DNA of 21,977 nt, taken from positions 1-21,977 of the forward strand of contig JANDJZ010000647.1 in the NCBI GenBank assembly GCA_027943245.1, in the 5' to 3' direction. A program made the position numbers and the translations under genes. Within the stretch, counting starts at the first letter, position 1; each line of letters begins with the position of its first letter. Source of the stretch: Acanthamoeba sp. SK_2022b. Its lineage: Eukaryota; Discosea; Longamoebia; Acanthamoebidae. Below, piece by piece: positions 2,772 to 5,189 of this stretch. The notes beneath the pieces are model-generated. The model ran no database searches, was not told where the DNA came from, and worked only from the letters and a program-made list of their open reading frames with translations.

Positions 2772-3169
2772 ATGGACCAACGTTACCGTGCTGCGATGGT
2801 ACTTCCACATTGTGTCTTTCTTCTCAGTATTTATTTTTATTTTCTTTTTTAAAGATAAATAACCTGGGCTGGGCAGGTGCTGGGGGGAGTAGGCGATGCG
2901 ATTGGGTTCCGCAACGGCAAGTGGGAGTTCCTCAAGGACGGGCCCCGCATACACGCACAGCTGGGCGAGCTGGGCGGCATCAGCGCCATCACGTATCCCG
3001 CCCCTCTATCTCCTCGCCCCGGCGTGCGCTCTTTTTGATAGTTTGGTGAACAACAACATCGACACCGACAAACAACAGAGTAAACAGAAAGGACTGGCGA
3101 GTGAGCGACGACACCGTGATGCACATCGCCACCGCCGAGGCGCTCGTTGACGATTGGGAAAAGTGAGCA

Positions 3170-3219
<50 letters not shown>

Positions 3220-3355
3220 ACGCGTACAGGCTTTGCTCACTTTGTTGCCCCTACCAGCATGAAGGATTTGGAGGACAAGATGGCACGGAAGTACGTGATG
3301 TGTGGAAGAGACATGGAGGGACGAGGTGCGAGACACCAACACGACTCCACAACAT

Positions 3356-3448
<93 letters not shown>

Positions 3449-5189
3449 CGTGCGACACATCTGACACCGAATTGTTTTTGGAACCAGCGGCGGGCGAGAA
3501 GACGATGGAAACGCTGATGATGATGGAGGGCGTCGTGCCGTTCGAAGGCACGCGCATCACTCCCGTTCCCTGGAACCAGATACCCTACGGTACACCTTGA
3601 CACACGTTGCTCTCTCCTCACGGAGCCCGACCCCACGATTCGTTTTGCTCATCGGGTCTTGTGGCGCCGGGCCAGACCCCAAGGGAGGCGGCTGCGGCGG
3701 CGCAATGCGAGCCATGGTTCGTCGTGCGTGTCGTGTGCCGTGTGTCGTGTGTGTCGTGTGTCTTGCGTGTCTTGCGTGTCGGTGCGTAATCCCATCTGAC
3801 TGTGTAGTGGTTGGTTTAGTGCATTGGGCTTCGATTTCCGGGCCAGGCCAACCGAGACAAGCTCGTCGAGCTCTCCATCGAAAGCGGCCGCATGACTCAG
3901 TACCAATCCCGCTCGTTCTCTCTCGCTCTGTACGCACATTGTTGATTGTTCGTGCGCTTACCCCATGTACTTGCCATCTCGATCAGCAACCACCCTGTGG
4001 GCTTCCTCGGCGCCTTTTCATCTGCGCTGTTCGCCGCCTTTGCCGTCGAGGGCCTGCCACTGCCTAGTACAGCTCTTTTCATCTGTTGTGGTGTGGCTCT
4101 GCACGTTTGATAGAGTCCCTCACCTCCTTGTCGCCTCTCAGAGTGGGGGCATGGTCTGCTCGAGCACTTGCCCAAGGCCAAGGAGTATGTCCAGGGCGTG
4201 GGCCGCGACGTCGAGCACTACGCCGAGGGCATCGAGTACTTCGAGCAGGCCTGGATGAAGTACATGGAGGTCGCGACCCCCACCCATGGAAACCTCGCTT
4301 GGCCCGTGGCTGACGATCGCCTCTGCAGGAGCGCGGCCTGTTTCACAGCGACGTGCCAGCGTTCCCGGCGCGGTGGGGCGTGGTGGAGCGCGACGCCTTC
4401 TACAAGAAGCTCTCGTTCGATGGCTGGGGCGGCTCCTCCGGTACGACGACGCCTCTCGTTCTCTCGCTCTGTGTGCTGGCTGTACTGTCTCGTATGACCT
4501 CACTACATTCACCACGTGGACCGTGTCGACTATTCCAGGCCACGACTCGGTCATCATTGCCTATGACGGTATACCGCTTTTTATATCTGATTGTAAATAT
4601 TTATCAGTTGATATTGATAAAAAATATTCTTCTTATTTTTGATGTATTATTAAAACCTTTCTGGCCCAGCCCTTCTGAGCGCGGGGACGTCGTGGAACGA
4701 ACTTCTGCTGAAGGCTGCCCTTCACGCAGGCGACTCAGACAGCACCGGCAGGTAACAACAACACAACAACACACAACAACACACAACAACACAACACACA
4801 GCACACCGCACAGCGCAGGCAACCCGTTTTGTGACGACAATGCGTGTGGGGGGGGGGTTGGGGCCCAACCCAGCATTGCCGCTTCGCTGTGGGGCGCGAT
4901 GCACGGGATGCGAGGCGTGCCCGAGAGCCACTACAGGAACCTCGAGTACCGCGACCGCCTGGAGAACCTCGCCGAGATGCTCTACCTCTTCGCCGCGCCA
5001 GACCTGCCCGCGCCCGCCGCCACGTCGTCGGGCTCGTCGTCAGGGGCGGCGGCGTCGTCTTCGTCGTCTTCGTCGTCTTCGTCGTCGCCACCAGCGGCAC
5101 GAAGCAGCGAGTGGGCGTGCAAAACGTGCACGTTCCTCAACGCCCACCGCGAGACGGCGTGCGACATGTGTGGGGCCTCTCGCCACTGA
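2772..5189 (+). CDS. ADPRH: ADP-ribosylarginine hydrolase (ARH1) fused to an NZF zinc finger
   Basis: ARH1 releases ADP-ribose from arginine, reversing mono-ADP-ribosylation. Thirteen exons: 2772-2798, 2877-2992, 3088-3162, 3258-3325, 3488-3589, 3676-3716, 3820-3899, 3987-4066, 4142-4269, 4329-4440, 4539-4568, 4670-4751, 4874-5189. Every junction keeps frame and gives 418 residues. Family signatures run in order: GDAIGFRNGKWEFL, WRVSDDTVMH with Asp55-Asp56 (same numbering as the human metal-binding pair), GGCGGAMRAM, SIESGRMTHNHP, WGGSSGHD and AGDSDSTG with Asp308 and Asp310. All metal and catalytic acids are present. The ARH1 fold should end near LAEMLYLF. A Ser/Ala/Pro-rich linker follows, then a finger (394-413) WxCx2Cx3Nx6Cx2C. 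Its Thr400-Phe401 and Met412 occupy the ubiquitin-contacting positions of NZF fingers. Typical ARH1 is about 357 residues and lacks this finger. Probably cytosolic. Confidence 0.94.
3172..3218. repeat. (TG)n tract in ARH1 intron 3
   Basis: About 23 TG units, starting 9 nt after the donor GTGAGC at 3163 and ending 39 nt before the acceptor CAG at 3257. Confidence 0.97.
3358..3445. repeat. (TG)44 tract in ARH1 intron 4
   Basis: Longest pure dinucleotide run in the window (88 nt), inside the intron 3326-3487. It is the second TG-tract intron in a row in this gene. Confidence 0.97.
4752..4873 (+). other. ARH1 intron 12 with ACAAC repeats and a G10 run
   Basis: Intron splitting the Ser codon just after the catalytic GDSDST motif. 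It contains ACAACA/ACACAACA repeats (4752-4800) and a homopolymer of about ten G (4848-4857) near the acceptor CCCAG. Splicing AG|C gives DSTGS-IAASLWG, the expected family sequence. Confidence 0.88.
5106..5189 (+). other. NZF (RanBP2-type) zinc finger coding segment of the ARH1 fusion
   Basis: Encodes the last residues of the ARH1 gene product: WACKTC, TFLN, then CDMC and a GASRH tail. The four cysteines are spaced C-x2-C-x10-C-x2-C with the invariant Trp and Asn of the NZF family. It shares one uninterrupted exon (4874-5189) with the end of the hydrolase domain, so the fusion does not depend on any splice prediction at this point. Confidence 0.95.

What the first reader, a model, noticed from the sequence alone, without database searches (positions are those of the whole stretch)
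2772..5189. ARH1 hydrolase fused to a ubiquitin-binding-type NZF finger
The sequence shows a complete ARH1 (SDD at 54-56, GDSDST at 307-312) and, in the same final exon, an NZF finger whose Thr-Phe and Met occupy the residues that contact ubiquitin Ile44 in NZF fingers such as that of Npl4. Known ARH1 proteins end before this point. Established knowledge: ARH1 cleaves arginine-linked ADP-ribose, and Legionella SidE-family effectors attach ADP-ribose to Arg42 of ubiquitin. Free-living amoebae are natural Legionella hosts. Inference: the fusion could recognise ADP-ribosylated ubiquitin, or ubiquitinated ADP-ribosylated proteins, and reverse the mark, a possible amoebal counter-defence or endogenous Ub/ADP-ribose eraser.
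Basis: partly seen in the sequence, partly recalled or inferred. Interest (0 to 1): 0.88.

Follow-up and report, generated by a model that had tools for sequence, protein, structure and literature searches.

The report
ADP-ribose eraser carrying ubiquitin-binding-type finger
An Acanthamoeba-like amoeba gene joins an enzyme of the kind that strips ADP-ribose from arginine to a small zinc finger of the kind that grips ubiquitin, a real and conserved fusion whose parts are known but whose purpose is untested.

Summary
A 13-exon gene (2772-5189, +) encodes 421 residues: a full ARH1 hydrolase, a Ser-rich linker and a C-terminal NZF-type finger whose Thr403, Phe404 and Met415 sit where Npl4's ubiquitin-contact residues sit. 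The Acanthamoeba castellanii orthologue has the same finger, also on an intron-free, transcript-like contig; the 10 differences in the finger avoid nine signature positions. It scores with TF/TY-type (ubiquitin-like), not ZRANB2-like, RanBP fingers.

The domain pair is not new in print: a 2014 survey listed a RanBP finger on an A. castellanii 'ARH3-like' protein, almost certainly this gene, with no ubiquitin reading of it in the passages seen. Added here: it is ARH1, not ARH3, and two other ARH genes carry other ubiquitin-binding-type domains (HDAC6-like zf-UBP in this genome; UBA-like on one metagenome contig).

Most likely the finger parks an arginine-ADP-ribose eraser on ubiquitylated proteins. 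No binding or activity was tested.

The parts
2772..5189 (+). whole gene, exons 2772-2798, 2877-2992, 3079-3162, 3258-3325, 3488-3589, 3676-3716, 3820-3899, 3987-4066, 4142-4269, 4329-4440, 4539-4568, 4670-4751, 4874-5189; 421 aa
   Evidence: GT-AG splice sites and open spliced frame; homologue support for the starts of exon 3 and exon 7
2772..4994 (+). ARH1-type ADP-ribosylarginine hydrolase domain, residues 1 to about 357
   Evidence: human ARH1 374 bits; PF03747 189 bits; model of orthologue P0001 matches human ARH1 structures best
3104..3115 (+). SDDT acidic motif, residues 57-60
   Evidence: aligned with human ARH1; S, D, D at least 90% conserved in 50 homologues
3687..3713 (+). GGCGGAMRA conserved ARH motif, residues 137-145
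   Evidence: GGCG, M and R invariant in 50 homologues
4729..4746 (+). GDSDST acidic motif, residues 310-315
   Evidence: G, D, D and T invariant in 50 homologues
5007..5108 (+). Ser/Ala/Pro-rich linker, residues 362-395, includes the repeat array 5053-5086
   Evidence: 19 of 37 identical over residues 358-394 against P0001
5109..5186 (+). NZF-type zinc finger EWACKTCTFLNAHRETACDMCGASRH, residues 396-421; stop codon at 5187-5189
5127..5141 (+). C402-T403-F404-L405-N406, with the Thr-Phe pair at the Npl4 ubiquitin-contact positions
   Evidence: Npl4 contacts T590, F591, M602 in PMC4386640 (passages)
5160..5171 (+). C413-D414-M415-C416, with Met at the Npl4 M602 position

Best explanation
The gene makes an ARH1-type hydrolase, complete in its acidic motifs, that removes mono-ADP-ribose from arginine, joined by a flexible Ser-rich linker to an Npl4-like NZF finger. 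The finger most likely binds the Ile44 face of ubiquitin, mono or in chains, with little linkage preference, and so concentrates the hydrolase on ubiquitylated proteins, where it takes ADP-ribose off arginines of the ubiquitylated protein rather than off the ubiquitin that the finger holds. Shown: the fusion, its presence in two species and the residue signatures. Inferred: zinc and ubiquitin binding, hydrolase activity, and the choice of substrate.
For: Full ARH1 domain with both acidic motifs. Finger has the Npl4 T/F/M triad. It scores 40.4 bits on a profile of 15 TF/TY-type fingers of this genome against 14.3 on 12 ZRANB2-like fingers, and 28.6 against 15.4 with the T-F columns masked. The 9 chosen signature residues are the same in A. 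castellanii while the linker has drifted. An intron-free, transcript-like contig encodes linker and finger (P0001). Two other ARH-family genes carry ubiquitin-binding-type domains: zf-UBP at C614 in this genome and UBA_4 in P0008.
Against: The finger is below Pfam's cut-off in both species. Its best single solved match is the ZRANB2 finger, 24.7 against 24.4 bits for Npl4. No confident model of the finger was obtained. No ubiquitin-binding data exist for it; some NZF fingers also bind other proteins (HOIP NZF1 and NEMO). No arginine mono-ADP-ribosyltransferase of the ART family was found in the genome, but no control genome rang in that search either, so it does not show absence.
Confidence: 0.5

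Rival explanations
1. The finger recognises, and the hydrolase cleaves, ADP-ribose on Arg42 of ubiquitin itself, a counter-measure against SidE-type bacterial effectors.
For: Human ARH1 is an arginine-specific eraser with weak but detectable activity on ADPR-ubiquitin (PMC10951314 passages); a tether could raise local concentration, for example by holding a neighbouring unmodified ubiquitin of a chain (inference).
Against: NZF fingers bind the Ile44 face, and a HOIP NZF1 backbone oxygen may contact Arg42 itself, so the mark should hinder binding; human ARH1 was detectable only at 10 uM; zf-UBP and UBA-like domains on other ARH genes fit general targeting to ubiquitin; no link to infection was found.
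Confidence: 0.15
2. The finger binds a partner other than ubiquitin, or targets the enzyme to a complex through a non-ubiquitin surface.
For: HOIP NZF1 binds NEMO with a separate surface; the variable finger positions 408-412 and 417 could adapt to a partner.
Against: The ubiquitin-facing T, F and M are among the residues conserved.
Confidence: 0.2
3. The finger binds single-stranded RNA, like ZRANB2 fingers.
For: ZRANB2 finger 2 is the top solved match by 0.3 bits.
Against: At the ZRANB2 positions W-A-R-R and N (alignment; their RNA role is recalled) this finger has A-H-R-E and D; it lacks the NF-A-S/A/R-R pattern of this genome's 12 ZRANB2-like fingers; profile scores favour the TF/TY class by 13 to 26 bits.
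Confidence: 0.05
4. The finger is a functionless tail kept by chance.
For: Short, below Pfam's cut-off, after a low-complexity repeat.
Against: Kept in a second species with 10 differences that all avoid the chosen signature positions (p 0.005), while the linker drifts.
Confidence: 0.05

Closest known systems
Human ARH1 (ADPRH; 3hfw, 6g28, 6iux)
   Same: Whole hydrolase domain; 52% identity over 355 columns for the model of the orthologue P0001, same acidic motifs
   Different: Human ARH1 stops near where the linker starts and has no finger
A. castellanii Neff ADP-ribosylarginine hydrolase (P0002) and transcript-like P0001
   Same: Direct orthologue with the same finger; P0001 is 87% identical over 98% of the query
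   Different: The NCBI model P0002 omits the Ser linker and the exon around HDAVIIAYDALLSA that P0001 contains
A. castellanii 'ARH3-like' with ZnF_RBZ, and Capsaspora ARH3-like with zf-UBP (PMC4245714; passages read)
   Same: Same domain pair reported in 2014; the zf-UBP pairing resembles the C614 gene of this genome
   Different: The paper calls the A. castellanii protein ARH3-like; this sequence is ARH1. No ubiquitin mechanism for the ARH fusions in the passages read
Npl4 NZF finger
   Same: CTF.N and C.MC, the T/F/M ubiquitin-contact triad
   Different: Here attached to an ADP-ribose eraser, not to Npl4, a Cdc48/p97 cofactor (listing)
RNF114-type ADPr-Ub readers (PMC12687431; passages read)
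   Same: Zinc fingers plus a ubiquitin-binding motif working at the ubiquitin/ADP-ribose junction
   Different: Those are E3 ligases that read ubiquitin attached to ADP-ribose; this is a hydrolase with a different finger

Membership tests
ARH1 (ADP-ribosylarginine hydrolase) | Full-length similarity to ARH1 well above ARH3 | tested here: met
   374 bits to human ARH1, 32 bits or less to ARH3 chains
ARH1 (ADP-ribosylarginine hydrolase) | Conserved acidic motifs SDD and GDSD | tested here: met
ARH1 (ADP-ribosylarginine hydrolase) | Cleaves arginine-linked ADP-ribose | not testable with these tools
   needs an enzyme assay
NZF (Npl4-type RanBP zinc finger, ubiquitin-binding) | W-x-C-x2-C-x10-C-x2-C with conserved Asn | tested here: met
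   WACKTCTFLNAHRETACDMC
NZF (Npl4-type RanBP zinc finger, ubiquitin-binding) | Thr-Phe pair plus hydrophobic residue (Npl4 T590, F591, M602) | tested here: met
   T403, F404, M415
NZF (Npl4-type RanBP zinc finger, ubiquitin-binding) | Score above the Pfam PF00641 cut-off | tested here: not met
   19.6 bits against 27; in A. castellanii 17.5 and 17.6
NZF (Npl4-type RanBP zinc finger, ubiquitin-binding) | NZF fold with bound zinc | tested here: inconclusive
   finger pLDDT under 50 in the full model; alone 68.8, helical, and Foldseek found no chain for it
NZF (Npl4-type RanBP zinc finger, ubiquitin-binding) | Binds ubiquitin | not testable with these tools
   needs NMR, ITC or pull-down
RNA-binding RanBP fingers (ZRANB2 type) | Fits the ZRANB2-like finger profile of this genome better than the TF/TY one | tested here: not met
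   14.3 against 40.4 bits; 15.4 against 28.6 with T-F masked
ARH3 | Closest to ARH3 | tested here: not met

The most novel reading that the evidence does not exclude
Amoebae and their kin have repeatedly (NZF, zf-UBP, UBA) bolted ubiquitin-binding domains onto ADP-ribosyl hydrolases, making a class of ubiquitin-directed ADP-ribose erasers. In Acanthamoeba the ARH1-NZF member cleans arginine ADP-ribose from ubiquitylated proteins, or from ubiquitin chains in which a neighbouring ubiquitin carries the mark. It would be a eukaryotic eraser built for the ubiquitin/ADP-ribose junction, possibly used against arginine-modifying bacterial enzymes.
Probability: 0.25. Interest if true: 0.8.

Novelty: new variant of a known kind. 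Interest (0 to 1): 0.5.

Why it matters
Cross-talk between ubiquitin and ADP-ribose is an active field, and a 2025 review (PMC12687431, passages) still speaks of the discovery of hydrolases of the dual ADPr-ubiquitin mark as work to come (that mark is ubiquitin on ADP-ribose, not Arg42-linked). A natural hydrolase with its own ubiquitin-binding-type finger, in a genus whose members host ubiquitin-modifying bacteria (abstracts in the listing), is an easily tested case. Several kinds of ubiquitin-binding-type domain on ARH proteins suggest a functional link that was listed in 2014 and for which ten paper searches listed no later study of the ARH fusions.

Tried and rejected
The first gene model used a wrong acceptor for exon 7 and misplaced donors; corrected, and exon 3 corrected. 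Searches used the 418-residue model (3 residues short); one search used the 421-residue one. Structure of the finger: uninformative (pLDDT under 50; alone, helical, mean pLDDT 68.8, Foldseek found no chain to compare). ART-family search (PF01129) found nothing, but no control genome rang either. PARP domains are plentiful, 31 exon-level matches, which does not imply arginine as target. UBA_4 and UBA searches: none of the 23 listed matches lies within 5 kb of any of the 11 ARH loci. A third protein search for further UBA-ARH1 fusions gave only P0008 itself and P0009, which covers 38% of the query region, so that fusion rests on one contig. The ten paper searches listed only PMC4245714 as bearing on the domain pair; most listed papers were seen as listings only, and only open-licence papers are held. 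The Npl4-ubiquitin structure paper is not held. The ARH subclass of the zf-UBP gene could not be settled.

Full report
What is there. The window is one contig (C803) of a 45 Mb, 1129-contig genome. The closest named relative of this gene is Acanthamoeba castellanii, and it is not identical to it (orthologue P0001 87% identical), so the window is probably another Acanthamoeba species (inference from this one gene). On the plus strand, thirteen exons from 2772 to 5189 join through twelve GT-AG introns into a 421-residue protein. Residues 3-354 of the 418-residue model align with human ARH1 at 374 bits, against 32 bits or less for ARH3 chains. Motifs SDDT, GGCGGAMRA and GDSDST are present and largely invariant in a 50-sequence alignment. 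An AlphaFold model of P0001 has 331 of 411 residues at pLDDT 90 or more, the tail from 354 under 50, and matches human ARH1 structures best (52% identity, TM about 0.9 by target).

The finger. The last exon runs from the end of ARH1 through a Ser/Ala/Pro linker into EWACKTCTFLNAHRETACDMCGASRH. Pfam sees it only below its cut-off (19.6 against 27 bits), and the whole-genome PF00641 scan (29 matches) did not list it. Against solved structures it matches ZRANB2 finger 2 (24.7 bits), Npl4 (24.4), TAB2 (23.0) and TRABID (22.4). To sort it, I read 30 RanBP-type fingers of the genome (the 29 and one): 15 TF/TY type, 12 ZRANB2-like, 2 TL type, 1 truncated. The names ubiquitin type and RNA type rest on resemblance to Npl4/TAB2 and ZRANB2; none of these fingers was tested. 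On profiles of the 15 and the 12, the window finger scores 40.4 and 14.3 bits, and with the T-F columns masked 28.6 and 15.4; Npl4 and TAB2 behave the same way and ZRANB2 the opposite way. PMC4386640 (passages) says the Npl4 finger binds mono-ubiquitin through T590, F591 and M602 and is non-selective for linkage; T403, F404 and M415 fill those places here.

Is it kept, and is it transcribed. The A. castellanii Neff protein in NCBI (P0002) and the longer P0001 both end in QWACGTCTFLNARHNATCDMCSASRG. Identity between window and P0001 is 327 of 349 in the ARH domain, 19 of 37 in the linker and 17 of 27 in the finger. The 10 finger differences all miss the 9 signature positions (p 0.005 if placed at random; the positions were chosen by me from known NZF residues). 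P0001 lies on a 1288-base contig that holds 411 codons without introns, while the window gene has twelve introns; I infer that it is transcript-derived. The NCBI model lacks the linker and one ARH exon, probably an annotation error. Of the 193 homologues listed (the best 120 of 605 and of 1212), only these two have a Cx2C..Cx2C finger. A second ARH1-like gene in the genome (C530) ends without a finger, although its reading frame may be interrupted.

Other ubiquitin-binding-type domains on ARH genes. The ARH gene at C614 (minus strand) has a zf-UBP finger upstream: 39.9 bits in the genome scan, 59.4 bits when spliced, 80 bits to HDAC6. GT-AG introns join it in one frame to RILGCIYGNCLGDAVGL, which I recognised by eye as the start of an ARH domain: Pfam did not score it in that piece, but the PF03747 match at 183185-183748 begins at profile position 39, which fits. 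Of 62 listed matches to the RanBP, zf-UBP, UBA_4 and UBA families (the window's own finger is not among them), this is the only one within 5 kb of the 11 ARH loci; about 0.05 would fall within 1.5 kb by chance. Separately, P0008, an unnamed metagenome ARH1 (56% identical), starts with a UBA_4 domain over Pfam's cut-off (33.9 against 21.8); a dedicated search found no second example, so it rests on one contig, and its solved matches (best TDP2, then UBX domain-containing protein 1) are weak (E 0.05 and above). Ubiquitin-related domains on A. castellanii PARPs were reported in PMC4245714.

Prior art. PMC4245714 (2014, passages read) states that amoeba, Filasterea and sponge ARH3 homologues have extra zf-RanBP, zf-UBP and WD40 domains, with ZnF-RBZ in A. 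castellanii named in the Fig. 3 legend. In the other ARH loci L009-L020, with 1.5 kb flanks, a Cx2C pattern scan gave RING-like, zf-UBP, poly-Cys and other hits but none of RanBP type, so this is almost certainly the same gene family (inference; no accession was seen). The fusion as such is therefore in print. What this work adds is that it is ARH1, that the finger has the ubiquitin-class signature, that it is conserved, and that another gene of the genome and one metagenome contig show comparable fusions.

How it most likely works. A flexible tether and an Npl4-like finger point to recruitment: the hydrolase is held at ubiquitin and clears arginine ADP-ribose nearby. A HOIP NZF1 backbone oxygen may bond Arg42 itself (PMC9294000 passages), so a bulky group there should clash; and human ARH1 acts weakly on that substrate, detectable only at 10 uM (PMC10951314 passages). 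It could still act on a marked ubiquitin next to an unmarked one. RNA binding is unlikely. Ubiquitin binding itself is inferred, not shown; models of the finger failed.

Verdict. Observation confirmed; interpretation partly supported; new variant of a known kind. Interest 0.5: clean, testable and seen in more than one form, but the domain pair was listed in 2014 and the function is open.

Noticed in passing
9941-10441 (+): ORF of 166 aa with two divergent ubiquitin repeats (PF00240 183.6 bits, two stretches); the second ends NGG followed by a 14-residue tail. About 4.75 kb downstream of the ARH1-NZF gene.
   Followed up: partly
L011 (G000:C614, about 184812 down to 182856, minus strand): An ARH-family gene preceded in frame by an HDAC6-like zf-UBP finger; its ARH subclass was not settled.
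   Followed up: partly
L029 1534-3760 (G000:C530): ARH1-like paralogue without a finger; residues 71-130 and 158-168 of the query are not covered by tblastn, so its frame may be interrupted (decay or assembly error).
   Followed up: no
P0008 residues 4-40: UBA_4 domain at the N-terminus of an unnamed metagenome ARH1, one contig.
   Followed up: partly
P0187 residues 3-97: ARH1 with N-terminal TPR repeats on a metagenome contig.
   Followed up: no
P0002 against P0001: The NCBI A. castellanii Neff model omits the Ser linker and the exon around HDAVIIAYDALLSA, probably an annotation error.
   Followed up: partly
1231-1301 (+): tRNA-Gly (tcc) gene.
   Followed up: no
about 1755-2633 (-): Frames that look like an EF-hand (calcineurin B-like) gene, head to head with the ARH1-NZF gene; judged by eye from the ORF list.
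   Followed up: no
3172-3218 and 3358-3445: Pure GT microsatellites inside two introns of the gene.
   Followed up: no
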